A DNA stretch of 64,000 nt from Phytophthora quininea (lineage: Eukaryota; Oomycota; Peronosporomycetes; Peronosporales; Peronosporaceae). The stretch covers positions 496,001 to 560,000 of the forward strand of contig JAAVTG010000670.1 of the NCBI GenBank assembly GCA_011947345.1, read 5' to 3'. Shown piece by piece: positions 1-20,776 of the stretch (positions are counted from its first letter, which is position 1; each line of letters opens with the position of its first letter). A program made the position numbers and the translations under genes. A model generated the notes under the pieces. That model worked only from the letters and a program-made list of their open reading frames with translations. It was not told the DNA's origin and did no database searches.

Positions 1-1941
1 GCGATCGACTCACTGAAGTCCCTTGGTCGCCACCAGACTTGCTTATTGGTGAGTTTTCATCATCGTCCAGCAGCACCCCTTGATCCCCAAGACCACGTTT
101 GTAGATACTGTGCAGCTCAGTCACAGACAGCATTTCAGAGTCGGCTGCAGCAATACTTGAATATGAACTTGCGACGTCTAGGTGATCCGATTCGTTGGTG
201 TTTTCTATGAGTTGTTTTTCTTGGTCCGTGGCGCGTTTGATCTCGTTCAAGATTTTCTCCTCCTCTTTTCGCTCTTTGTCTTCATAAGACTTGCGTCGAA
301 GTTGAATCTCTTCACCAGCCATCTCGCTTGGATCGGCAGTAGGCTGGATATCAAACGCAAACTCATCGTCTTCACCATCTGCAGAAGCTTCATCTCCTCG
401 ACCAGGGTATTCACTAGCATTTGTCGCTACCGAAAACGTCAAATCCGTCGACAATTCCAGCTCCTTTTCAAATTCTCGCTCGTCCGGAAATGCTGGCCCG
501 CTAGGCAGCGTGTATCCGCCATCATCTCCAACATCGTCTACGCTGTGGGCCCCATCGTTTTGCTTCCGCATGCTTTGATATGAAATGCCAAATGCATCTG
601 GACTAGAACTTCCACCAACGACTTTGTGAAAGTCCGAAAAGGTTCCACTGGGCTCTAACGTTGTCACGTGGGCGACTCGGACTTCCTCTTGAAGGGATAC
701 GTCGATGAAGCCTTCCGTTTTTGTGGCTGGTAGCGCCTTCAATAATGCGTTGTCTGCGGTAGAGGCATTGCTATCCACAGCTTTAGTTGAAAGGGACTGT
801 TGCTCAACAGTGAGGGTACGCTGCTGCTTCCCCTCAACCTGGAGAGTACTCACCACTGCAGCGTCTACCTCTAGTACGTCTTCGTCGTCATCGGAATCAT
901 TCAAACGAAGAGGTGGTGTTATGGAAACACTCTCGTCGTCTTCCTCGCCTAGCGAGTCGTCGGAATCGTTGTCGTCCTCAACAGGGTTCATTGTACCTGT
1001 AACCACAGGAATCGACACTGGTGCTGGTGGCGGCAAATTCGCTGGCGGTGGTATTGTTTCATCGTCAAGTGAAGCGATCGAAGTATCTTTCACCATGTTG
1101 GAGCTTGCTTGGCAGTCAGCACTCGCATCTGCTATCTCTGAGTTCACAGCATCGGTTTCTTTTGGTGAAAATTGTTCCTGTTTGGGTAGCTCGACGTCGG
1201 CTTTCGGGGATAGATTTTTACGCTCTGGTTCCCCTTGAACTGCTGTATGAGCGTTACCCAGTTCTTCTTGAGGTGGTCCTGCGTCATCAGAACTTGCTGC
1301 GAGATCAAGAACTGCGTCGACGATATCAACACCTGACGGCAGCTCCTCGGAGAGCGACTCGTTTCTACGTTCAACCTCATCAACGATTCCACCTGCGTCT
1401 ACAGGGAGAATTAGCCTGCAACATATTACCAAGCATTTCTGACGGCGTACTAGTCTCTGACTCAGGCATGGAAGTGGAGTCGTGGAATTCTTCTCCGTGG
1501 ACGTCGTCATCTACAGCAGTGAAATTAATCTCCGCATGACTTTATTCCGCAGTAAGTGGCGATTGCCCACGAACCGTCGAGGTTGGTGACAGCGTCCAGC
1601 TGGCTTAGGATGCCTTCTGCGGTCAGGTCTCCGCCCTGGTCGCCCTCGACCGCGTCTGTATCAAAGAACTCTGCGTCTGCTGCCGAGTAGCATCGACGTC
1701 GGGTTAGATCCTTCTGCTAGTCGTACCAAGGAATTTTCTGTGGCCCGACCTTCGTCCTCCTCGACGTCGTTCAGCAAGTCTACAAGTGCAGCACCACACA
1801 GTCAGCCACGCGAATGATTAACCATCTCGTCTCTCCGCGCACCGTCCAGCACTTCCACGTCCGACAGCCCCGTTGCTTCCATCTTCTTGAGCTCCTTATT
1901 GGCAAGTGAGCCGTAACAGCTTCAACAACCGCTGCAGCCAT
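1..1941 (-). pseudogene. Acidic, serine-rich protein of unknown function, disrupted in its 5' part; runs off the left edge
   Basis: Read on the minus strand, positions about 1395 down to 1 form one unbroken frame of roughly 465 codons. It is rich in Asp, Glu, Ser and Pro, with short acidic runs near 950 and a charged Lys/Glu stretch near 250. No domain is recognised. The likely start is the ATG at 1941, 56 bases from the divergent IMP1-like gene. Between 1941 and 1395 the same compositional style continues but in changing frames, with shifts near 1905, 1690, 1530 and 1395 and an in-frame TGA near 1803. Each shift fits one extra base or two missing bases, unlike the one-base losses elsewhere in the window. 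It is either a decaying gene or a poorly sequenced one. The minus-strand coding sense is well supported; function is unknown. Confidence 0.55.
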
Positions 1942-1996
1942 GCTTTATCGCAGTATTTATCCCGATCGATAGAAATACAAGCCACACCGACAAGCC

Positions 1997-2566
1997 ATGC
2001 CCGTGCAGGCGCTGCGCGACGTGGGCGTGGTGCTCTCGTGCTTCGCGCGCTTCGGGGGCGTGGCCTACTGCCTCATGCAGGCGGCCGACACCATCAAGTG
2101 CGTGGGGCCGTCCATGCTGCCCACGCTCAACCGCGACGGAGACATCGTGCTGCTGGACAAACTCTCTCCCAAGCTCTGGCCGCTGCAGCCCGGCGAGGTG
2201 GTGATCGCCAAGAGCATGTCCAACCCGCGGCAGACCGTGTGCAAGCGCATCATCGCCCAGGAGGGAGACACGGTGTGCGTGCGCCCCAGGTATTCCTCCT
2301 CGGAGGTCGAGTTCCACCGGATCCCAAAGGGCCACGTCTGGCTCGAGGGCGACAACAAGTACGACTCGCACGACTCGAGATACTACGGACCGGTGCCTTA
2401 CGCTCTGCTGCAGGGAAGAGTGCTCATGAGGGTGAGTCTGTGTTGTGGGGTGATTGGTGGGGGGTACGTGTTGATGGTGGTGGTGATTGTGTTGTAGATC
2501 TGGCCGATCAACCAGGTCAAGCGGATCCAGAAAGAAGTCGCTCCGCAAGCCTTCCGAGAGAGGTAG
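1997..2566 (+). CDS. IMP1: Mitochondrial inner membrane peptidase, IMP1-like
   Basis: Signal-peptidase family S26 serine protease. In the family, IMP1 removes sorting peptides of inner-membrane and intermembrane-space proteins. The spliced product is 167 residues: exons 1997-2431 and 2498-2566 with a 66-base GT-AG intron that restores the frame into IWPINQVKRIQ. A hydrophobic N-terminal segment precedes the catalytic serine in GPSMLPT. The catalytic lysine is in VCKRIIAQEGDTV. The C-terminal signature GHVWLEGDN..DSHDSR.YGPVP is classical for IMP subunits. IMP1 is preferred over IMP2 because of the GPSMLPTLN motif and the DSR-YGP box. A second family member lies at 4380, consistent with an Imp1/Imp2 heterodimer encoded by near neighbours. 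The 56-base gap to the divergent upstream gene must hold a shared promoter. Confidence 0.9.
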
Positions 2567-3034
2567 AGGGAGGAGGGCGGTAGAAGGAAGGGTGAGGATC
2601 GCTACATGTACGCTCAGCACGATTAAATAGCCCGTGCGTTGCAAATGGACACGGTCGCCTGGTTCGGCTTCAAAAACCAATTGTTTTCATTCCGCTACGC
2701 TACAACTAACGTTGTAATCGCTGTAGCTTACTGCAAAGTGAACAGGACTCTCTTCACGCACACAAAAACGAGGAAATTTGAATGGGAGGCGAGCACGGCG
2801 GATATTTACTCCGTCGGAGCTTGCGGTTCGCAGTCGCAGTCGCGCTCGCTGTTGCTCCACATGAATTGCCGGCGTAGCCGTCATAGCTGCCGTAGCCGTT
2901 TAGATACCCACTCCACCAACACTGACGCCGACACCGCTGCTTTCGTCGTGGTTTGCACCGCGACACGTTTTCGGCGGACACACTTCCACACCGTGCATCC
3001 AACACAGTAACTTAGTTGGAAATATCCACAGCGC
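2567..3034. other. Intergenic stretch with no supported gene
   Basis: No conserved coding signal was found on either strand between the IMP1-like stop and the archaemetzincin stop. Open frames here have composition driven by short GCCGTAG-type and CAGTCG-type near-repeats around 2830-2920 and match no family I recognise. The two flanking genes end tail to tail, so this is 3' flanking sequence. Confidence 0.5.
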
Positions 3035-4352
3035 TCATTGCGATTGAGACCTCAACCATGCCGCGAAACCACCGAACATCCGATCTTCACCCTCAAAACG
3101 CTTGCAAAACGCAAGCAGGGCTTCGTATCGCTTGTCTGACTCTGCTCCAGTCGCCCGTAATACTTTTTCAAGATCAACAGGGCACAGGTACGGCGGCTGC
3201 CGTGCGTCCTCGCTTAGACCGGCGGATCCTTGCATCGAGCACGCATAATAGACGCAGTGGTCTATCCCAAAGCAGTGCCCGAGCTCGTGTGAAGCAGTCT
3301 TGCAATACCGAGACAGCCAGAGCGTAGCGTCAGACTGCTCACAGGCAGTCGAAGCGCTTGCAGCAGCTTGCAATGCCCCAGACGATGGACAAACTTGAGA
3401 TGATTTCCTCACGGTCTTAGCCTTTTTTTTGCCGGCGGACTGTCAGAGGTAGAACCCTTCAAACAGGTGTCAATATACTCCTGACAATGTGATGCCGGCC
3501 AGGCATGTTCCAGCTCAACTTCTTGGTCCGTGTCTAAAGTGGGGTTATATCGTGCCGTGGACACGACTGCCACGCGGCTTCCCCGTATGCTCGTCCGCAG
3601 CAAAACATATCTTCCTCGTCTTCATACAAGTCGTGATCGACGAGGAGCAGCAGCGCGTACGCGTCCTTCGGTAGCAGGGAAATGGCGCCGTCGAGAAGGT
3701 CATCCAAGCTCAGTTGACCGTCGAACACTCCGTCTAGCGATGGGCGTGTTCGGACTCGCACAGATTCCGAGCCGATATTCAGCGCAATATGGGCACCTTT
3801 CGACCGCTTCTTGGTCAGTCGACCATCGTCCCAAGCCTCGAACCGCAGTTTCGACTCCGCCAGCAGCTTGACAGGGACGTTGTAATAGAATGCAGCAACG
3901 TACTCCACCACGTCCTCGTGACGAGGCCTTGGAATTGAGGAGAGCTTCGTTTTCGCATTGGTCTGCGATTTGATCTTGGGTTGGATCCAGTCCTGAACGT
4001 GCTTTATCTCCGCAGCGATGGATGGAGCTGGTACAACGTACACCGTCCTCTTGTCGGGAGTCACTCGGTTCCGCTCCGGCAATTGCAGCCAGGACCGGAC
4101 GCTCTGTGCGTCGTATTTGGGGTCCCATGCCAAGTCGTCGCCCGGGAGGACCAGTGGGCCGGGGAAGGCCAAATGCTCCGACGCGGCGTCTTCGACCGCG
4201 GCCTTAGTCGCTCGGCCTGACGGTCGCGTGGCTGCAACGCGCTGTTGCAGCGTGCGTCTAGTGTACCCCGCCTTCTGCGCGTGGGACGACGGCTCCACTC
4301 GCAGCAGATCGTGCTTGCAGCTCGGCATGGTGAAATTCCACAATGTAGCCAT
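3035..4352 (-). CDS. Archaemetzincin-type zinc metalloprotease (two homopolymer frameshifts)
   Basis: Peptidase family M54 (archaelysin/AMZ). The minus-strand product has the zinc-binding and family signature HELGHCFGIDH followed by Cys residues spaced as in the family's second zinc site (CVYYACSM ... LCPVDLEKV), near the C terminus around 3270-3160. Upstream are matching N-terminal pieces, including YVVPAPSIA and a region ending DHDLYEDEEDMFCCGRAYG. The coding frame breaks twice. One break is at a run of four G near 3580, where one more G restores GGSRVAVVSTARYNP. The other is at a run of eight A near 3425, where one more A joins KKKAKTVRKSS. Both look like undercalled homopolymers, so the gene is probably intact. 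The start at 4352 (MATLWNFTMPSC) lies 27 bases from the divergent IMP2-like start. Substrates are unknown for the family. Confidence 0.85.
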
Positions 4353-4379
4353 GTTGATACCACAAAAGTCTCGACTGGG

Positions 4380-4947
4380 ATGGCGCTGCTGCGGACGGCG
4401 CGCAACGCCGTGCTGATCGTGGGCTGGGCGGGGGCCATCAAGCGCTACGTCGGGGACGTCAACTACGGCATGGGCGTGTCCATGACGCCCTCCATCCCGG
4501 ACGGCTCCTTCATCTTCATCGAGCGGCTCTCGCGGCGGTGGCGAAGCTGGCAGCGCGGCGACCTGGTGCAGCTCTACTCGCCCACGCGCAGCCACGGCGA
4601 GACCATTACCAAGCGCATCCTGGCGCTGGTACAGTGTCCAGCTACTGGAGACTATTGCGGCAGTTAACGGTAGACTCCTGACGACGTTGTTGCTGCAGGA
4701 GGGAGACGTGGTGGAGCTGCAGCCGCGCTTTGACAAGCAGCGGCGGGGCAAGGTGACGGTGCCCAAGGGCCACGTGTGGGTGGAAGGAGACAATCCCACG
4801 TGCTCGGTGGACTCGAGGCATTTCGGGGCCGTACCTGCAGCCATGCTCATCGGGCGACCATTCTGGATTGTACGTTTGCAACGGAGCGAGGAGGATGACA
4901 GACCATTAACGCCCGTTGCTTGGTATTATGTTGCTGCGCAGATCTGA
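4380..4947 (+). CDS. IMP2: Mitochondrial inner membrane peptidase, IMP2-like
   Basis: Second S26-family protease, about 165 residues, exons 4380-4628 and 4699-4947 with a 70-base intron. The catalytic serine is in GVSMTPSIPDG and the catalytic lysine in TITKRILALEGD, a motif completed across the intron. The C-terminal box reads VPKGHVWVEGDNPTCSVDSR with FGAVP. The spacing and the SPTR...KRILALEGD block resemble IMP2 more than IMP1. The last 26 codons after RPFWI may instead be an in-frame 72-base intron (4870-4941, GTACGT...GCAG) leaving a two-codon last exon; both readings use the same stop. Paired with the IMP1-like gene 1.8 kb away, it suggests both catalytic subunits of the inner-membrane peptidase complex are encoded together around an unrelated protease gene. 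Confidence 0.87.
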
Positions 4948-5153
4948 AGAGGACGTTTGTCTGTCGGAAGAGCACCCAGCAGAGTAGATGCTGTAGAACT
5001 GGTGGATACGTTGAAGGTCCGGGTGCCGACGGAATTCTCGTCTGTGAGCCGATACCCGGTAGAGCTATGGCTTTCGTCGCTGTCAAACTCTAATATAAAT
5101 CTGCGGCAATGTGTCCAGTGTCTTCTTCTTACAAATGCTTGGGCTGCTTATCG

Positions 5154-5537
5154 TCATGAGCTGTCTGCTCGCTTGGCGCCACAGTTGGCGCAGAAGTTTG
5201 CCTGCTCGGAAGGGTATGCAGCCTGACACTGCGGACAAATCGTCGGTCGAGGTGCTCGCTTCCTCTCTTTGCTACCTCCTGCCACTGTCTCCTCCTGCCG
5301 CGCCCTCTGCTTGGCCTCGTACACCGAGTGGTAGTAGTCCATCCGCGCCAGCTCCTCCTGTCCGTCCGCCAGCAATGCACGCACTCGGTCCGGGTCCCGC
5401 GTGTTCCTCTCGTCGCGGAACTTCATCTGCACATACGCCTTCATCATCTCGCGCTGCTCCCACTGCGGGCATCTGCGCGCCGAGCGCAGACACTGAGCGT
5501 ACAGCTGCAGCACCGCCCAGCGCTGCTTGCTCGTCAT
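5154..5537 (-). CDS. LYR-motif (Complex1_LYR) protein with C-terminal zinc ribbon
   Basis: 127-residue product, single exon. Residues about 8-75 match the LYR-motif fold: a variant motif LYAQCLRSARRCP followed by an amphipathic helix pair ending in DYYHSVYEAKQ. LYR proteins act in mitochondria as assembly factors or subunits, usually binding acyl carrier protein and helping Fe-S or complex I/II/III assembly. The C-terminal tail has two Cys pairs, CPQC...CANC, spaced like a zinc ribbon, which is not usual for small LYR proteins. The canonical Arg of LYR is replaced by Ala. It is divergent from NDUFB8 with 127 bases between starts, suggesting co-expression with complex I. The fold assignment is from motif reading only; the partner is not known. 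Confidence 0.75.
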   Translation of the reverse strand: MTSKQRWAVLQLYAQCLRSARRCPQWEQREMMKAYVQMKFRDERNTRDPDRVRALLADGQEELARMDYYHSVYEAKQRARQEETVAGGSKERKRAPRPTICPQCQAAYPSEQANFCANCGAKRADSS

Positions 5538-5664
5538 TGTGCTGAGGTTCCGTTGAGAGGGTTACGTTAGGCGGTTACTCGAAACGTATTGGTCGAAAAT
5601 GGTTTTGACCCATTTTCATTTACCCATTCCGGCTGTGCAATTTCAGCCGCAGAACCGAGAGACC
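5538..5664. promoter_or_regulatory. Shared divergent promoter of the LYR protein and NDUFB8
   Basis: The 127 bases between the two divergent ATGs must contain both start regions. There is no TATA-like box, as is common in oomycete promoters. The short pyrimidine-rich patches near 5600-5640 could serve as initiator elements, but no specific site can be assigned. Confidence 0.4.
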
Positions 5665-6131
5665 ATGAGCTCCCGAGCGCTCAGCCACGCCCTCCGCGGA
5701 GGCCTCAGCACCAACGTGCGTCGCCACGCGCTCGCCACGCGCGGCGGACACGCGCACCGCCCGCCACCGCCGCCGTTCGCGCGCATCACGCCGCCCCAGC
5801 AGGCGCTGCACGAGGAGGCGGAGCTGGTCTGGAACGACGGCGTGGCCCCTGAGACGCTCATCGACTTTGACGCGCCGCACATCCCCAAGTACCAGGCGCT
5901 ACGCCACTGGCTGATCGGCCTTGGCGGGTTCGTCACACTCATGGGCGTGGTGACGCTCTACAACCCGGACTCGTGGCGACAGGCGGTGAGGAAATTCGCC
6001 CCCTGCGTTTAACACGAGAGAAGCGAACTGACCTGTATATTCTGTTGCAGTCGAAGCGTGGAGACAGTCTGCCGGACCTCAAGTGGGAACTGGGCGAGGT
6101 GAACGAGCCCGAAGGAGAGATGGACGAGTAA
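5665..6131 (+). CDS. NDUFB8: NADH dehydrogenase (complex I) subunit NDUFB8/ASHI-like
   Basis: Spliced product of 133 residues, exons 5665-5985 and 6051-6131, 65-base intron. The N terminus is a typical mitochondrial presequence, rich in Arg, Ser and Ala with no acidic residues in the first 30. The core matches the ASHI/NDUFB8 pattern: EELVWNDG-like box (AELVWNDGVAPE), then KYQALRHWLIGLGGF and a single transmembrane helix, ending with the family C-terminal block LKWELGEVNEPEGE. NDUFB8 is an accessory subunit in the membrane arm of respiratory complex I. A second complex I subunit gene lies at 12.8-13.1 kb. The chosen ATG gives the presequence; an upstream ATG at 5599 would add 22 residues and weaken it. 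Confidence 0.85.
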
Positions 6132-6667
6132 GGATCTTTGTCAGTGTGGATGAAGAGGCTGCTGTCAGGGAGAGATAACCAGCGCACACAAAAAAAATAA
6201 GAATCGATTTCAATGCACATTTTCCCACCACGGTGAAAAGAATGCAAGCCGCGTCCCAGGTTTATTGCGGGAACGGTAGTTCCAGGCGGAAATCGCAAGC
6301 GCTGTTAAGGATTGGACAGCCAAGTCGATGCCTTTTCGAATCGATCTCGGCGTTGGTGCTCACTTTGCAATTCTCCATCGGCTACGAAAGCTTCTTCGCA
6401 TTGTATCGACAAGGCTCCACCAACCGAGCAGATGCACACGCAAGAAGCCGAAAAAGCTCAACTACGTGGATCCAGCCAGGGATCAGGCAGCGAGCACACT
6501 CGATGGTCTCCAATTCAGTGGATCTTCAATGACTAACAAAACCGAGCAACCCCGCACTACGAGGACGACATTCTTCATACTCTATCGACGGCTGCTGCAG
6601 AACCAACCCCCGATAAAAGCAGCAACTAATCGCTTACTTGTTGAAAAACCTTGATCTCTTCGCAAAA
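6132..6667. other. Intergenic sequence between convergent NDUFB8 and ClpP genes
   Basis: Both flanking genes end here. Open frames in 6233-6654 lack conserved features and overlap each other in different frames, as expected of non-coding sequence. I see no RNA gene, repeat or promoter that can be defended. Confidence 0.5.
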
Positions 6668-13404: not shown

Positions 13405-14277
13405 ATGCAACGCCGACGAACAAACCTCTTTGCCAACGCTGCTGCATTGCTGCTGCTGGCTCTTCTCGCTCCGTCGCTGACATCGGCCAAGGACCCACCG
13501 TGCTCCAGTGCCGAAGAGTGCTGCTCGCTGTGCGGAGACGACTCGGAGCGCTGCGCGCGCGGCCCGTGCAGCATGAACATGGTTACGCGCACCTTTTTCA
13601 GCATCAGCGCGCCTACTGAGAGCGTGGGCTTCTGGGACGTCGTCTTCTCCTTCTATGGCATGGTGCCCTACCTCGTGCCGATCGCCATCGCGCTGGAGCT
13701 CATCTTGCACCGCCGCAGCTGGACGCGCGTGTTCGCCTTCCTCTTCATCCCGATCTTCGCCATCGTCAACGCGGTCATCCTGGTCAAGAGTTTGGGCGAG
13801 TGCAGCGAGTGCGACCGCCCGTGCGGGAGCTGCGTGTCCAGCAACGGCATGCCCTCAGGCCACGCCACCAACGCCATCGGGCTCTGCTTGTGGATGATGC
13901 TAGAGACGATCCTGGGCGTCGGCAAGCGGTGGAAACTGCTCGCAAAGGTTGCTACGTGCGCCGGGCTCGTGCTGCTCTTCGTTCCAGTGCCGTACAGCCG
14001 AATGTACTTGGGCGACCACACAAAACTGCAGGTGGTCATTGGCAGCGTCGACGGCGTCGTATTCGGACTCATCTACTTTTTCGTGCTGCGCTATGTGGTC
14101 GGAAAGCGGCTGCCAGGCGCCACGGAGCGGATGAAAGAGGGTCGACTCAAGTTCCTGAACATGGCCAACGACTTTTACACCGTCGAAGCGGATCGCCCCG
14201 CGAGCTTGGCGCCGTTGGCGAGTGCCGATCAGTACACTGCATCCGAGTCGCCACGGAAGTTAGAAGGAGGCAACTAG
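13405..14277 (+). CDS. PAP2-superfamily lipid phosphatase, copy 1
   Basis: 290 residues, single exon. An N-terminal signal-like hydrophobic segment (AALLLLALLAPSLTSA) is followed by a Cys-rich luminal stretch CCSLCGDDSERCARGPC. Several transmembrane helices follow, with PAP2 motif C2 PSGHATNAIG near residue 150 and motif C3 SRMYLGDH near residue 198. The usual motif C1 is altered to a Cys-rich ECDRPCGSC. PAP2 enzymes remove phosphate from lipids such as phosphatidic acid, sphingosine-1-phosphate or polyprenyl diphosphate; the substrate here cannot be read from sequence. A paralogue at 39034 shares the Cys-rich N-terminal block and the same motif order. The start at 13405 gives the signal segment. 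Confidence 0.85.
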   Translation: MQRRRTNLFANAAALLLLALLAPSLTSAKDPPCSSAEECCSLCGDDSERCARGPCSMNMVTRTFFSISAPTESVGFWDVVFSFYGMVPYLVPIAIALELILHRRSWTRVFAFLFIPIFAIVNAVILVKSLGECSECDRPCGSCVSSNGMPSGHATNAIGLCLWMMLETILGVGKRWKLLAKVATCAGLVLLFVPVPYSRMYLGDHTKLQVVIGSVDGVVFGLIYFFVLRYVVGKRLPGATERMKEGRLKFLNMANDFYTVEADRPASLAPLASADQYTASESPRKLEGGN

Positions 14278-14879
14278 GTGAAAGACATGTTGCTTGACTA
14301 GCGACAGAAGTAGAAACGATAATTATCTTTATGAGCGCAAGGAGTTGGCTAATTCGATCGTTGTGAACCTGACTTATTCTGCTTTCAGCACCATTGGAAT
14401 TGGCGTTAGGTGGTTCATTTTGGAGGCCTTGCAAGGTTTACTTTTTCAAAACTACGCAGCCCCGCTGCAGGAGCCCACTAGCCCGGTTAGATCTCATCAA
14501 TGGCAGACATCGCTTCACGGCAGCGTCAAGATCATGGGAAAGAAGGTAGCCGAGACCACCAGCGACGACAAAGAAAAGAAGACCAAGGAGGAACTCGCTC
14601 AATGCTGCTGGGATTTCCATTGGGAATTTCATTCTGTGCGGTAATAGATAAAACGGCGACGTGTTTGCGATGCATAGATCCTTTACGATACGGCACGTCA
14701 CCAAATTTCTTTGCTCCAAACGGAACGAGAAACAGTGCGAGCGATAGTTCTTTCTCAGTGAAAATAGCAGTGTCTCCTGAGCCTTTTGGAATTTTGCAGT
14801 CGATCACGGTCAGGAACCAAACCGAGCAATCTCCAATGTCGAGACGATCGCCTCGTTTTAGCCCGTATTCCACGCGTGG
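14278..14879. other. Unresolved degraded sequence left of the hAT fragment
   Basis: Short open frames on both strands overlap here. A plus-strand stretch from 14535 begins MGKKVAETTSDDKEKKTKEEL and a minus-strand stretch 14873-14590 contains GDCSVWFLTVIDCKIPKG. Both look protein-like but neither is extended by its neighbours and I recognise no family. It is probably relic transposon DNA at the edge of the island. Confidence 0.3.
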
Positions 14880-15114
14880 TACACCGCAGCCGTTTTCTCA
14901 ATCGCCAGCTGCTACACACCGTTTACAATCAAGACGGAATGTGGGCAGTGGTGGATGCTCGGCTCACGTGCTCAATTTACTCATGAAGGATGTCTGTAAG
15001 TTTCCGTCGATCAAAGCTATTCATTCTAGAGCGGTCGCACTTGCTCGATTTGTTCGTGATCACGTGGCTTTACTGGATGAGTTTAAGCGTCTACAGGATG
15101 GGGTCCGTCGAATT
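14880..15114 (+). mobile_element. hAT transposase gene, left fragment
   Basis: The plus-strand frame contains GGCSAHVLNLLMKDVCKF and RAVALARFVRDHVALLDEFKRLQ, a typical hAT ribonuclease-H-fold region just ahead of the conserved TRW box. Coding sense stops abruptly at 15114, exactly where the Harbinger terminal repeat begins, and resumes at 20159. It is therefore the 5' side of one interrupted transposase gene. Confidence 0.75.
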
Positions 15115-15152
15115 GGGCACCTTCCACAACCATTCTAAAACGGTTTAAGGCA
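15115..15152 (+). repeat. Left terminal inverted repeat of the Harbinger-like element
   Basis: Starts GGGCACCTTCCACAAC and pairs with the reverse complement of 20121-20158. The first 16 positions differ at one base, and the rest, through the shared TAAAA and TTTAA blocks, aligns with small gaps. Confidence 0.8.
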
Positions 15153-15189
15153 ACCCTAACCGCATCATTAAACGCCGCATTAAACGACA

Positions 15190-15234
15190 CGAATTGTTTG
15201 ATCGCCTATCTCTTTAATGTCATCAAACAATTCG
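15190..15234. repeat. Subterminal hairpin of the Harbinger-like element
   Basis: A perfect 13-base inverted repeat, CGAATTGTTTGAT at 15190-15202 and its complement at 15222-15234, is separated by 19 bases. Together with the nearby CATTAAACG motifs (15160-15188 and again near 20107-20131) it may be part of the transposase or Myb-like protein binding region. Confidence 0.65.
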
Positions 15235-15329
15235 GCGTTTTAGTTTTAGTCAGGTGTTTTATGCCGCCCTGGAGCTGCAACCTGAACCCCGCAACGCGCA
15301 ACCGGTTTGAATAAGCGATCTTCTGCGGG

Positions 15330-16828
15330 CGCGAAATTCCGCGCGCTTTTCGACCCGAAGCTCACTTTCGAAGACGCCGAGCCGGAGACGCACTGCTTGG
15401 TGACCGAGACGGTAAATTTGTAGTGGGCCTGCTGTTGCTATCGCTGGCTGACTACTTGTTCTACCTTCTAGCTCAACGATGACGATAACCAACACACGCA
15501 AAAGGAGCCCCGGTGCCAGCAGAGACCCCATCGAGAGCCTTGAGCCGTCAAAGGCCTTGAAGACCGCCAAGACGATCTCGCCGTCAATATCGAGTCGCTC
15601 CCAGTCAACGATGATCGCGCTGTCGGGCGCCCCGAAGACCGCCTCACGGTCGTCGTCGTGCAGATCGCCGTGGAAGACGAGATCGACGACAGCCTCGCCG
15701 TCGTCACTGCGAAACTCCCCACTGAGTCAACGCCGCTCTCCGTCTCGCGTGACCACTAAAACTGCTGCCACCGTGGGAATCCGCTCAACCTCCATGTGCG
15801 CGCCCGTGCAGCCCGTCGACCAGGGCGAAGAACCAGCATATGCAGCAACCAGGGCAAGTTTGTTGTCCGCCCCTGCGAGTCCATCGCTCGAGGCCTGCGA
15901 GGCCTGTCGACGTCGCGATCTCACAAGAAGCCCGCCGACAGATTCTTACGCCCAACCTACGCTTCCTGCTCCACGCAATCGGGCTACCCGTCCGACGTGA
16001 CACGTCGGCACTCGTTGGACAGCCAACACTCCGTCGTCTCGGGATGCGCCACGCCACTTCCAGAGCCCGTTGATGCTCACTCTTCGCAAGAGACGCTGAC
16101 CCAGTCGCTGCCTGGAACTCCAAGTAACTCTCAAGGTTTGTCTTCACCAGCGAATAGTCCGCCGCCAGAGTGGCAACCAGCGTCATGGCCGGTGTATGTG
16201 AGAAGCATACTGAAGCACGCCAACCTCGAGTTGGAAGTTTGAGGCCCAACCTGTGAGGCCGCGCTGTCGCTGTGCTCGACGTTGCAGCGCATTTACTTGC
16301 AGCAATGCTCGCAGCAACAGGTTTTGTCGAGAAGACAACTGCGCATTCAACGGAGACTGTGAGAATGCGCTCCGAGAGAACCCTGACCTGGTGCTCTGTA
16401 CCAACCGACGCACTGGGGAATATGGCATCACCACTGTTGGACTTATTCCAAGCGGAGAGGTGATCGGACAGTATTTCGGCCATTTCATGGGGGTTGGTGA
16501 TGTGCCCAATCGCGCGGCATCGGATAACGGCTACCGCATGCTTCTCGAGACAACGTCGCTAGACGGGAGGAGCGTCGTGATCGATGCGCTCTGGTGTGGC
16601 GGAAAGATGAGGTTCTTAAACCGTCACTGTGACGCGAACTGTCGTTTCCAAGAGGTACAGGTCGGCGATGAACTAACGGTTGTGTGCGTCACGCAGCGCA
16701 ACGTTCTGACCGGAGAGAGCTTACGGTTTCCTACGGAGATCAGCTCTGGTTCCTGTGTCGCTGTGGGTGGTGGGGCTGCCAGCACCGATACTTGCAGGAC
16801 CTCTAGTGCGTCGCATTCCAGACCTTAA
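15330..16828 (+). CDS. SET-domain (histone-lysine methyltransferase-like) protein carried by the Harbinger element, frame-disrupted 5' part
   Basis: The C-terminal frame from about 16200 to 16828 encodes a cysteine-rich pre-SET-like segment (CRCARRCSAFTCSNA, FCREDNCAFNGDC) and a SET domain. The SET motifs include YGITTVGLIPSGEVIGQYFG, a GYRM box and IDA...MRFLNRHCDANC, the last matching the family's cofactor/lysine-site signature. SET enzymes use S-adenosylmethionine to methylate lysines, usually of histones. The upstream part, Ser/Pro/Thr-rich and poorly conserved, runs in several frames from about 15330. An intron is likely near 15413-15472, and breaks lie near 15530, 15760 and 16235. A stop at 16826 ends the product soon after the domain. 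Whether it is active cannot be told. Confidence 0.68.
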
Positions 16829-17056
16829 GTGCTAGCGGTGCAAATAACTTGTGTTCAGTATACCATGTGATGCTCATTTAACTTGATATTTGTATACTCG
16901 ACCTTTTCCTCCCGTTTTCAATACAAACTCTGAGCCATGCTACTTGGTGCATTCTGGATTTCGTCAAGAAGAGGGACAATCATGAAGGTCTGATCGCTGT
17001 CTGTGTCTGTCTAACAGAAGCTGCAGTGCTAACAGTGTGTGCTCGTCCTGTTGCAG

Positions 17057-18520
17057 CAAAAGGGTCGGCAGGTTGGATACAAGAACTATAGCGTGCACGA
17101 AGTCATTATGCTGTGCCTTACAGTTCAAGAGCTCAAGCCGCTGGGTGGAAACCACTGGGAGCGAGTCAAGTACGTCTACGACGAGGGACGTCCGAGGCAC
17201 TGGCCAAACCGTACTGCTGGATCACTCAAGCGCAAGTTCAAGGAGCTGGCGGGGACTTCCAAGCCGACGGGCGAAGCCAAAATGCCCTTCCACGTAGCTC
17301 TCGCCAAGACTGTGAAGCAGACAGTGGATGAAGACACTTCTGTACGGACCCTGGACGACGGCCTGGATGATGGCAAAGATGACGACGAATCCTGAAGCGT
17401 GTCGCTCATGCCGCACGCGCAAAGGCTGACAAAGCCATGACAGATCTTCGGAACGAGGAGAGGTCTCAGCACGAGGCTGTGGGGAGGATGCTTCTGCTGA
17501 TGAAGAGGAGATCGATGAATACTCCCAGCTAGAAGTATAGGAAGGAGGAGCGGCTAGGTCCAGTGAGCCAGACGTTGGAAACACGGAGGGGAATTCGCAC
17601 CACTGCACGGGTCAGACACAATTTTACGACGAGATGGCACCATGATTGACGTGGCGGTGGCTGCTGAGTTGGGGCTTTCTGAGGAGTCCTACGACGAAAA
17701 GGACGAAGAGGAGAAGCCTGCGCCGCCGCCGATTGTTGAACCAAACGGAGTCGGGTTCTCCAGCGCTCAAAGTCCAACGGCTGCCACCATCCAAAGTCAG
17801 GCGTCTGCAACTTCCGCTATGACCCCAACACGAAATCCCATGGGCAGGCCCAAACGGCCGAGGAACGGTGAGCGGCCGACGGTCACCAGCCCTTCAAAAG
17901 AACCCCTCCAGCGCGACCCAGCAAAGGCCGCGGCCGACGCTCGTGAAAAGAAGGCAAACCCGAAATTGGGAGCTATCTCCGCACGTTTGGGTAGCCAAGA
18001 CCTTCGCGTCTTCAGAGATAACATTGCGACGCTCGCAAAGCAATCGGCGAGCGATGCATCTGCGCAATCCACAGAGAACGCTTACAGCAAATCGAAGCGA
18101 GTTCGGACCGCTCGCAAGTTGAGCGACATGGACAAAACTCTGGCGGCGGTCGAACAGCGGCAGTCATCTGGCCGAAGTGAGATTATGGAGATGATGCTAC
18201 TGTTTCGTGAGGAGTCCAAGCGAAAAGAGGCGGCCGGTGCAAAGCGGCGTCGCGAGGAACGACTCGAGAGAGGCAGCTGAAAGACGTGAACGGAAAGACC
18301 GTGACCGAGCGAGGGCGAAGAGATGGAAGCGACTGAAGCGCGTCGACAGCGGGAACTCGACGACGCGAGACTCGAACGCGAGGAGAGATACCGGGCAGAG
18401 TCGGCAGCTCAATCGCTGCGAACCGAGCAGTGGGAGCGAGAGCGCGAAGAGAATCGTCGTCGCTATGAGCAACGGCTCGAGCTCGACCGCGAGGAAGCAA
18501 AAATCGCCATGACCAAATGA
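17057..18520 (+). CDS. DUF6818 / Myb-like protein of the Harbinger element, with frame breaks
   Basis: After an AG acceptor at 17056 the frame reads KGRQVGYKNYSVHEVIMLC...LGGNHWERVKYVYDEG...RTAGSLKRKFKELAGTSKPTG. This tri-helical Trp/Phe-spaced domain is the oomycete DUF6818 type, related to Myb/SANT. An acidic linker follows, then a Ser/Pro/Thr-rich middle (from MIDVAVAAELG at 17642) and a charged coiled-coil tail ending AMTK at 18520. Frame breaks near 17392 and 17482 are each repaired by one base in a C or G run; others lie near 17530-17640 and 18280. In Harbinger elements a Myb-like partner binds the ends and brings in the transposase, so that role is inferred here. The first exon upstream of 17057 is not resolved. 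Confidence 0.65.
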
Positions 18521-18595
18521 TGCTGATGTTTTCAGCAATGCAAAGAAGTGAGAGAAACACGCTCATCGTCTCAGTTAACAGCAGCTATCTCCAGA

Positions 18596-19882
18596 TTATC
18601 TTCTACACCAAAAAAAAGTTGTGCGGATCTGACTTATCTCTAGAGCTCGCACCCGGTAGTTCGACAGCCTGAAGAGGTTGTCCAAGCGCAGCGAGCGTTT
18701 CTCTTTGCTCGGCGGCAGTGGCACCATAATCTCTCGTAGACTTTCTCTACAGAGCCCATTCCCCACTCCGCCGCTTGCCGAATCGAAGTGATAGCTGCTA
18801 ACAGAGTACTTGCTGATACTCGCACCGACGGTAGCAGTCGCCCAAGATCACCGTCCTTCAAGGGCGTCAAGATGCGGCCAGTCATGAGCCCAGAACATGG
18901 GAAGGCGCTGTCGGCTGTGACGCCATAGCGCATGTCCGGGCAGAGCTCAGCATCCAACAGGTTATCGCGAAACTCGACGCAGTTCTCTGCGTCATTCCAG
19001 CTTCCAGGGCAGTTGTGCTTCGCCCAAACAATGAGACCATCCGCACTAAAACAAAGCGTTCCTGTGACAAAGACGTCATGTAGCCAGCCGTTGTAGAACG
19101 CATTCTGGACATCGGGATCAGCTGGGTGCAGCACCTGATCGCCATCGAACAACTCCAGTTAGCATGGTAAATTCACCTAAACAACAATAGTGCAGTGTCA
19201 CCTTCAGATTTTTCCCGTCAATAAATCCCCAGGTGAACTGCAGCAGCGACTGGCGAAGGGCAGTCAGCTTGGCCAGTGCGCGTTGGCGAGTGCCAGAAGG
19301 CCACCAGATGCGGGCAGGGTAGAAGCTGGATAGGGATTTGCCCAGAGCCTCCTCGGCAGAGTTGAGCACGCGACTCAAGGTCGCTGGTGGAGCTCCAAAG
19401 AAAACACACGCCATCTTCGCATGAAGGGGTTCACGTAGAAGACCGAAACGATGGCAAGAGCCTGATGCTTGAACTTCAGCCGCGGAGGCCGCCCACCCTT
19501 CTTACTGTAGCCAGGCAGCCGGTAGAACAAGGAGAACTGCTCCAGCAAGGACTGGAACGACGACCTGGCAGCACAAGCAGTCAGCGCAGCTGTAGTTAGC
19601 TTAGCTAGTACGGTAAACGGCATAATCGACGGACCTATCGAGACTAGTGAAGTGTATGAGGTTCTCGTCAGTGCCCTCCCGCCACATTTTCGTCCAGTCC
19701 GAGTCGCAGGGCTCAGGAATGCATTCAAGCGTCGCGTAGTGACGCACCCGAAGCAAGCTCCGACGCTCATGCCGCAGAATTTCCTGGCGGAGCTTCCTGC
19801 GTAGCTCCTGGAGCACCAGAACGAGGCGGTCGCGCGTGCGTAAGTGTAAGGCTATCATCGCCAACAGACCTGCTCCGCGCAT
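18596..19882 (-). CDS. PIF/Harbinger DDE transposase (DDE_Tnp_4 type), disrupted
   Basis: The minus-strand order is: N-terminal MRGAGLLAMIALHL...TKMWREGTDENLIHFTSLDR; an intron of roughly 80 bases (donor near 19635, acceptor near 19560); then SFQSLLEQFSLFYRLPGYSKKGGRPPRL. Next come ACVFFGAPPATLSRVL and IDGKNLKV holding the first catalytic Asp, a short second intron near 19200-19150, and FYNGWLHDVFVTGTLCFSADG...WAKHNCPGSWNDAE with the second Asp region. VTADSAFP and the tail end in RVRALEISQ. Breaks near 19420 and 18724 are one-base losses; the latter is repaired by one base in a C pair (plus strand). The gene is convergent with the DUF6818 gene. Coding capacity is nearly complete, so the element may be fairly young. 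Confidence 0.78.
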
Positions 19883-20120
19883 CGCTTGTCAAATTTCGAA
19901 TTTGATGCGGGGTCTTCGCGCTCGCCAAAGATCGCAAAAGCTGTTGACTGATACAAATGTTGTCCGGTCTGAATTGACCTGATGATGCATCGTAAGCAAG
20001 AGAGTGGGGCAATCACAACTGGTCAGATTAAAAGTCTTTATGACGGTTTTGGTAGTACGTTTTTGGCCAAGCTGGTGCGGGCGAAATCGACGTCCCCTAA
20101 CCCCAGCATTTAAACGCTCC

Positions 20121-20158
20121 TCCATTAAACGCTTTTATATGAGTTGTGGAAGGCGCCC
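20121..20158 (-). repeat. Right terminal inverted repeat of the Harbinger-like element
   Basis: Read on the minus strand it begins GGGCGCCTTCCACAAC, then continues through TATAAAAGCGTTTAATGG. It is immediately followed on the plus strand by hAT coding sequence (NGVGARNLVKPVPTRW). Confidence 0.8.
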
Positions 20159-20776
20159 AATGGCGTAGGAGCACGAAATTTGGTGAAACCCGTCCCGACC
20201 CGCTGGTACTCAGTGTTTAATGGCTTGGAGAATGTGATGAATAATCGCGAAGTACTTGAGAAACTATTTGTGAGTCGTTCACACAAACTCAATGTCCATT
20301 GCACTCATGCTTGACCCATCGACAAACCTAAATGACTTTGTTGACAACGACAACGACAAAGTCGATAGACAAATACTTCAAATGGCGAAGTGGTGTGGTC
20401 TAACGACGACATCCAATGACCCCAAACTGACCGCAGAAATCCTAAAATTTAAAAGTTGGGGGCAGCGTGGTGGTGCATCCGTACGGGGTCAATATTCTCA
20501 GTCAAGCCCACGTAACTACTGGAGCGCTAAGAGAAGCCAGGATTATCCGTTGCTGACGAGAATTGCTGAATTGTTTTCGCCATTCCCACTTCATCAGCAG
20601 CTAGCAAAAGGGCCTGGAGTACGTTTGACCACATCCACTCGAAGAGGACGAACAGGCTCTCAGTTGAAAAAGTTGATATGCTTGCATATATCTGCATCAA
20701 TTACGGCACGATAAAGAAGGATGTAGTTGATCTTGCGCGCCATCAGTCGTGCCCTGAAAGTGTCGATGATAATTAA
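20159..20776 (+). mobile_element. hAT transposase gene, right fragment with dimerisation domain
   Basis: From 20159 the frame reads NGVGARNLVKPVPTRWYSVF with the hAT TRW motif, then LENVMNNREVLEKLF. From 20292 it continues ALMLDPSTNLNDFVDNDNDKVD and a block with YWS...DYPLLTRIA. After one shift near 20605 comes the C-terminal hATC dimerisation segment (WSTFDHIHSKRTNRLSVEKV). It is the continuation of the fragment ending at 15114. Breaks show the element is no longer coding. Confidence 0.75.

What the first reader, a model, noticed from the sequence alone, without database searches (positions are those of the whole stretch)
15115..20158. Harbinger-like transposon carrying a SET-domain gene, inserted inside a hAT transposase gene
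Seen: terminal repeats starting GGGC(A/G)CCTTCCACAAC in inverted orientation at both ends, and hAT coding sequence that stops at 15114 and resumes at 20159. Between them lie SET, DUF6818/Myb-like and DDE transposase genes. Known: PIF/Harbinger elements normally carry a transposase and a Myb-like protein. Inference: this element has captured or evolved a chromatin-modifying SET gene, which could act on silencing of the element or on the chromatin of its targets. SET fragments are numerous in Phytophthora genomes; this arrangement would explain how they multiply. I am not aware of this three-gene cargo being described, but could not search.
Basis: partly seen in the sequence, partly recalled or inferred. 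Interest (0 to 1): 0.87.

Follow-up and report, generated by a model that had tools for sequence, protein, structure and literature searches.

The report
Jumping gene carrying histone-modifier gene
A decayed DNA transposon in what looks like a Phytophthora genome carries a histone-methyltransferase-type (SET) gene next to its own transposase; this class was already named HarbingerS in 2014, so the arrangement is real but the basic discovery is not new.

Summary
A 5.04-kb element with inverted ends lies at 15115-20158 inside an internally deleted hAT transposase copy. Eight of eight fetched empty hAT sites read a single ATT there, showing a 3-bp target duplication (window: ATT left, AAT right). 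SET, DUF6818 and DDE transposase genes lie between the ends in 7 of 7 gene-bearing copies with both ends found, in three diverged lineages, so SET is a regular part and not a chance nesting. Flanking triplets fit ANT in 18 of 18 ends. Between lineages the SET domain keeps 56-72% protein identity with third codon positions near saturation, so it was selected for function. The window copy is broken in all three genes. That this explains the many SET copies is mostly not supported: 10 of 111 SET matches belong to this group. [quoted passage not shown] I file this as a HarbingerS member; Repbase itself could not be compared. Possibly new: gene modules, SET among them, seem to have been exchanged between lineages (copies C867 and C476).

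The parts
15112..15114 (.). left target-site duplicate, ATT
   Evidence: empty hAT sites read ATT in 8 of 8 fetched
15115..15148 (+). left terminal inverted repeat
   Evidence: (I1)
15479..16861 (+). SET gene, decayed; SET domain match 16421-16723; frame breaks near 16224 and near 16717; start at 15479 inferred from the open frame in L023
17057..18177 (+). DUF6818 gene, decayed; DUF6818 match 17138-17380; likely intron 5' of it (acceptor just before 17057, by eye)
18611..19882 (-). DDE transposase gene in several frames; FIDG, ADSAFP and E motifs read by eye; 5' end uncertain
20125..20158 (-). right terminal inverted repeat
   Evidence: (I1)
20159..20161 (.). right target-site duplicate, AAT (middle base differs from ATT)
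14820..15114 (+). left part of the host hAT relic
20159..20500 (+). right part of the host hAT relic

Best explanation
It is a degenerate member of HarbingerS, the known clade of PIF/Harbinger-type DNA transposons of Phytophthora that carry a SET methyltransferase gene. The DDE transposase (helped, by analogy with other Harbingers, by the DUF6818 protein as a DNA-binding partner) cuts at the inverted ends and pastes into ANT sites, leaving a 3-bp duplication (shown: ends, ANT, empty sites; inferred: the proteins' roles). The SET protein most likely methylates histones, best guess H3K9-type by profile similarity, on the element's own chromatin, damping or steering silencing so that copies persist (inferred, low certainty). 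This copy inserted into a hAT transposase copy; both are now defective.
For: Ends, genes and target duplication. SET, DUF6818 and DDE inside both ends in 7 of 7 copies: window, L023, L024, L027, L028, L029, L035. 18 of 18 flanking triplets at 9 copies fit ANT, the Pangu type (PMC4482050, passages), and Kojima 2025 relates HarbingerS to Harbinger2/Pangu. Selection: between lineages SET-domain codon positions 1+2 are 71-81% identical against 37-43% at position 3; NG86 dN/dS 0.11-0.14 for L028 against six lineage-B copies, dS above 2. The element SETs and six of the seven database relatives form one clade, 100/99 (the seventh, a weak fungal hit, was left out). Three of the seven are named as Phytophthora; P0004 of P. 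cinnamomi has SET followed by DUF6818. A profile of five relatives matches EHMT2 (H3K9) best, E 3e-21, ahead of H3K4 and NSD/ASH1L enzymes.
Against: I could not compare with Repbase HarbingerS sequences, and the transposase was not placed on a tree of PHIS groups. No expression, enzymatic or chromatin data. dN/dS in the SET domain is 0.27-0.82 within lineage B and 0.41-0.67 within lineage A, which fits decay but also weak constraint of late. Triplets differ in the middle base in 3 of 9 copies. The single L029 SET protein fits MLL1 (H3K4) and EHMT2 about equally, so the histone site is a guess. One of seven SET relatives is fungal (P0007, E 3e-5).
Confidence: 0.9

Rival explanations
1. SET is passive cargo: an old capture that rides along without a function for the element.
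For: The NHxC histidine or the tyrosine of GEExTVSYG is changed in 4 of 10 SET copies (window, L034, L036, L069). Short copies L032 and L033 with related ends carry no SET and still have target duplications. No copy was seen with all genes in clean long frames (ORF list of 9 loci; not tested systematically).
Against: Strong constraint on the SET domain between lineages with near-saturated third positions; the tail CRCGWWGCQHR(H/D)LQHL is kept in 3 of 6 database relatives, a variant in a fourth, the other two being cut short or mis-joined there; SET present in 7 of 7 gene-bearing copies with both ends.
Confidence: 0.12
2. The SET protein acts on host chromatin or on target choice, rather than on the element's own silencing.
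For: A trans-acting enzyme need not be limited to the element; SET matches also lie within 5 kb of listed MULE matches (5 of 111), so SET genes may be a recurrent acquisition, as Kojima states for MuDR.
Against: No data either way here; Pfam shows only SET in this protein and its relatives, apart from the DUF6818 in P0004.
Confidence: 0.25
3. Chance nesting: SET is a separate element or host gene inserted in a Harbinger.
For: The genome is rich in SET copies (111 matches).
Against: SET lies at the same place between the ends in 7 of 7 copies at different sites and in three diverged lineages; 10 SET matches lie within 5 kb of DUF6818 matches.
Confidence: 0.02

Closest known systems
HarbingerS (Kojima and Jurka 2014, Repbase Reports 14:2243-2250; known to me only through its citation in PMC12730594)
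   Same: Harbinger-type DNA transposon encoding a SET histone lysine methyltransferase, from Phytophthora, related to Harbinger2/Pangu
   Different: Nothing shown to differ; the Repbase sequences could not be compared, and whether the named families carry DUF6818 was not checked
Pangu / Harbinger2 (PHIS superfamily, PMC4482050, passages read)
   Same: DDE transposase, 3-bp ANT target duplication
   Different: This element carries SET; the words SET domain do not occur in the main text of that paper (term search)
DUF6818-DDE_Tnp_4 pairs without SET in the same genome
   Different: No SET match within 5 kb; their ends and target duplications were not examined
TET/JBP-carrying Harbinger (PHISTA) of rust fungi (PMC12730594, passages read)
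   Same: Harbinger-type element with an epigenetic enzyme as extra gene
   Different: DNA dioxygenase instead of SET; TA duplications; placed near Nuwa, not Pangu

Membership tests
HarbingerS | Encodes a SET histone methyltransferase within the element | tested here: met
   SET inside both ends in 7 of 7 gene-bearing copies; enzymatic activity not tested
HarbingerS | Harbinger-type DDE transposase | tested here: met
   PF13359 E 6e-8, above its cut-off
HarbingerS | Transposase related to Harbinger2/Pangu | tested here: inconclusive
   ANT duplications fit; no transposase tree made
HarbingerS | Sequence match to the Repbase HarbingerS families | not testable with these tools
   Repbase is not held here
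HarbingerS | Occurs in Phytophthora | tested here: inconclusive
   Window genome unnamed; of seven SET relatives three are named P. fragariaefolia, P. cinnamomi and P. nicotianae, three carry no organism, one is fungal and weak
PHIS group Pangu | 5'-ANT-3' target-site duplication | tested here: met
   18 of 18 triplets fit ANT, identical on both sides in 6 of 9 copies; empty site ATT in 8 of 8 fetched
Canonical PIF/Harbinger | 5'-TWA-3' target-site duplication | tested here: not met
   Triplets are ATT, AAT, ACT, AGT
hAT (host of the insertion) | hAT C-terminal dimerisation domain | tested here: met
   PF05699 matches adjoin the homologous flank at 13 of 13 other loci; sub-threshold in the window copy itself

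The most novel reading that the evidence does not exclude
The genes of HarbingerS are exchangeable modules, and the SET gene is one of them: lineages keep SET under selection and swap it by recombination independently of the DUF6818-transposase half. In copy C867 (L028) third codon positions differ from five lineage-B copies by 0.63-0.65 in SET but by 0.36-0.41 in the middle of the DUF6818 gene and 0.42-0.45 in DDE. In copy C476 (L036) the middle of the DUF6818 gene differs from its four lineage mates by 0.25-0.28 while SET and DDE differ by 0.03-0.06.
Probability: 0.4. Interest if true: 0.55.

Novelty: new member of a known kind. Interest (0 to 1): 0.35.

Why it matters
Transposons that carry chromatin enzymes are a natural test of how mobile elements negotiate with host silencing. 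The clade is known; the passages I saw in print only name and place it. This window adds integration-site evidence (ANT, with empty sites), long-term constraint on the SET domain, signs that gene modules are exchanged between lineages, and a bound on how much of the genome's SET expansion the clade explains.

Tried and rejected
1. SET multiplication by this element as the main cause: 10 of 111 SET matches near DUF6818; rejected as main cause. The DDE_Tnp_4 and MULE lists are capped (150 candidates scored of 338 and of 411), so those neighbour counts are lower bounds; the SET list does not show the frame-broken copies on C956 and C957.

2. Other SET matches within 5 kb of DDE_Tnp_4 (10 of 111, one being C580 of this clade) as a second Harbinger-SET group. 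For C558 the repeat shared by five SET copies (L062-L066) ends after 2.3 kb, before the DDE match, so there it is not one element. L071 showed no enclosing end repeats. L072 has a 19-nt pair that encloses SET and DDE, but its right arm lies inside an open frame next to DDE. The rest was not examined.

3. AlphaFold model of the SET protein P0001 with four relatives: mean pLDDT 37, useless; no fold search was made.

4. One fused SET-DUF6818 gene, as annotated in P0004: in three relatives and in the lineage-B reading the SET frame ends after a conserved tail, so two genes are more likely; unresolved without transcripts.

6. The SET tree used 23 of 29 fetched non-element SET loci (L041, L058, L061, L065, L066, L067 left out; L068 is the C571 element copy, entered as L029), and six of seven database relatives (P0007 left out). 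The 111 matches were thus only sampled, and long branches were flagged.

7. My first control for the swapped SET gene, lineage A against B, is near saturation everywhere and so is weak; (within lineage B) was added as a better one. Checking also widened the 5' identity of L028 to 73-89%. The two changes offset each other and I left the odds at 0.4.

Full report
What is there. The window lies in an unnamed 87.2-Mb genome of 993 contigs, by its protein relatives most likely a Phytophthora (inference). The element at 15115-20158 has inverted ends, arms 15112-15148 and 20125-20161, 37 nt, 81% complementary, flanking triplets included. Between them Pfam finds SET (+), DUF6818 (+) and DDE_Tnp_4 (-), each above its curated cut-off.

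Insertion. At 12 other loci the left-flank match runs up to the last base before the element, and at 12 loci the right flank resumes there with a 3-base overlap. Eight of eight fetched empty sites read ATT where the window has ATT on the left and AAT on the right. At 13 of 13 other loci that match the outer right flank a Dimer_Tnp_hAT match adjoins, so the host is a hAT copy. Compared with relatives it lacks two internal pieces; whether they were lost before or after the insertion is unknown. Contigs C956 and C957 carry the same insertion (same flank, 100%) and are not independent copies.

Other copies. With both ends found there are seven copies carrying genes: the window, L023 (C490, 95%), L024 (C85, 94%), and the diverged L027 (C221), L028 (C867), L029 (C571) and L035 (C508), which align to the window in pieces mostly at 65-77%. 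All seven hold SET, DUF6818 and DDE between the ends. L029 holds an extra insertion of about 4 kb near its 5' end. L034, L036 and the C756 copy (L030, L031, L069) also hold the genes, but one or both ends were not found in the fetched pieces or lie about 19 kb apart. The order SET, DUF6818, then DDE on the other strand is kept, except in L028, where a block with the end of the DUF6818 gene and DDE is inverted. Two short copies, L032 and L033, keep related ends but not SET.

Target site. In nine copies with both ends (the seven plus L032 and L033) 18 of 18 flanking triplets fit ANT; they are identical on both sides in 6 of 9 (L024, L028, L029, L032, L033, L035) and differ only in the middle base in 3 of 9 (window, L023, L027). 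ANT is the target type given for Pangu in PMC4482050 (passages read), not the TWA of canonical PIF/Harbinger.

The SET protein. It has a cysteine-rich stretch before SET, the SET domain and a post-SET-like tail (by eye). The NHxC histidine and the last tyrosine are both kept in 6 of 10 copies and in five of six database relatives, the sixth (P0004) being mis-joined there. The window copy is damaged: NHxC reads NRHC and a frame break removes the last motif. A profile of five relatives fits EHMT2 (H3K9) best, E 3e-21, ahead of H3K4 enzymes (7e-15) and NSD/ASH1L; the single L029 protein gave MLL1 and EHMT2 about equal, so the substrate is a guess. AlphaFold gave no usable model.

Selection. Between lineage A (window, L023, L024) and lineage B (L027, L029, L034, L035, L036, L069) SET-domain third positions are 39-41% identical while positions 1+2 are 76-81% in the pairs tabulated. 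Between L028 and B, NG86 gives dN 0.29-0.32, dS 2.1-2.8, ratio 0.11-0.14. The region before the SET domain is looser (dN 0.44-0.54 between A and B). Within lineages the ratios are higher (0.27-0.82 for the SET domain in B, 0.41-0.67 in A), as expected for decaying copies, though it also allows weak recent constraint.

Exchanged modules. L028 against five B copies: third positions are 0.36-0.38 identical in SET (307-309 codons) but 0.52-0.61 in DUF6818 plus DDE (475-491 codons); 0 of 10,000 shuffles reached the difference in each of the five (in L034 and L035 the DUF6818 domain itself aligns badly, dN 0.7-0.9, probably a frame shift, which lowers their second value). The A-B control shows no excess, but it is near saturation in all genes (0.33-0.40) and so is weak. 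A better control is the rate within B without L036: third positions differ by 0.047 in SET, 0.049 in mid-DUF6818 and 0.028 in DDE, so SET is not generally faster than DUF6818, yet L028 differs from B by 0.63-0.65 in SET and 0.36-0.41 in mid-DUF6818. SET is about 1.7 times as fast as DDE in that control, so the DDE contrast alone (0.42-0.45) would not suffice. In the same table L036 differs from four B copies by 0.25-0.28 in mid-DUF6818 but by 0.05-0.06 in SET and 0.03-0.06 in DDE, a second sign of exchange. In DNA, L028 is 73-89% identical to B at the 5' end, 72-74% over the stretch from the SET domain to the start of DUF6818 (the first half of SET does not align), 79-81% in DUF6818, 83-84% in the DDE block and 73-77% towards the 3' end (four B copies). 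The B copies are closely related, so the L028 result is one event in one decayed copy, and a faster rate in that lineage alone is not excluded.

How much of the SET expansion it explains. Of 111 SET matches in the genome, 10 lie within 5 kb of a DUF6818 match, 10 within 5 kb of a listed DDE_Tnp_4 match (one shared) and 5 near a listed MULE match, 24 in all. The element's SETs and six database relatives form one clade (100/99) apart from 23 other SETs of the genome (a sample, long branches flagged). So the element accounts for about a tenth of the detected matches. DUF6818 beside a listed DDE_Tnp_4 without SET occurs at 11 places, which fits SET being an addition to a DUF6818-DDE core, though those loci were not read.

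Literature. Searches of the open library. The term DUF6818 gave no paper, so I found nothing in print on that third gene under that name.

Mechanism. Shown: structure, target type, repeated insertion of the whole unit, constraint on SET. Inferred from Harbinger biology (recalled): DUF6818 as the DNA-binding partner of the transposase. Inferred with low certainty: the SET protein marks the element's own chromatin.

Noticed in passing
L028 (G000:C867:72000-79700), 956-6634: Mosaic HarbingerS copy: SET much more diverged from lineage B than DUF6818 and DDE, and an inverted block at about 4340-5862.
   Followed up: partly
L036 (G000:C476:24500-31000): Mid-DUF6818 third positions differ from four lineage mates by 0.25-0.28 while SET and DDE differ by 0.03-0.06: a second possible module exchange.
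   Followed up: partly
window 15112-15114 and 20159-20161; L023; L027: Target duplicates differ only in the middle base in 3 of 9 copies (ATT/AAT twice); could reflect carry-over of a donor base at the cut ends, or mutation.
   Followed up: no
L062-L066 (C558, C591, C674, C806, C807): Five near-identical (98%) copies of an unrelated SET gene in a shared stretch of about 2.3 kb; the three of them in the tree fall outside the HarbingerS SET clade.
   Followed up: partly
C772:189527, C589:63028, C532:155355, C386:51226, C111:24837: SET matches 1.4-2.9 kb from MULE transposase matches, in line with the MuDR-SET elements cited by Kojima.
   Followed up: no
C756:23926-42859: HarbingerS ends about 19 kb apart with an unrelated SET copy (29025) in between: probably a nested insertion.
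   Followed up: no
window 13405-14277: Open frame of 290 aa with a PAP2 domain beside the hAT relic.
   Followed up: no
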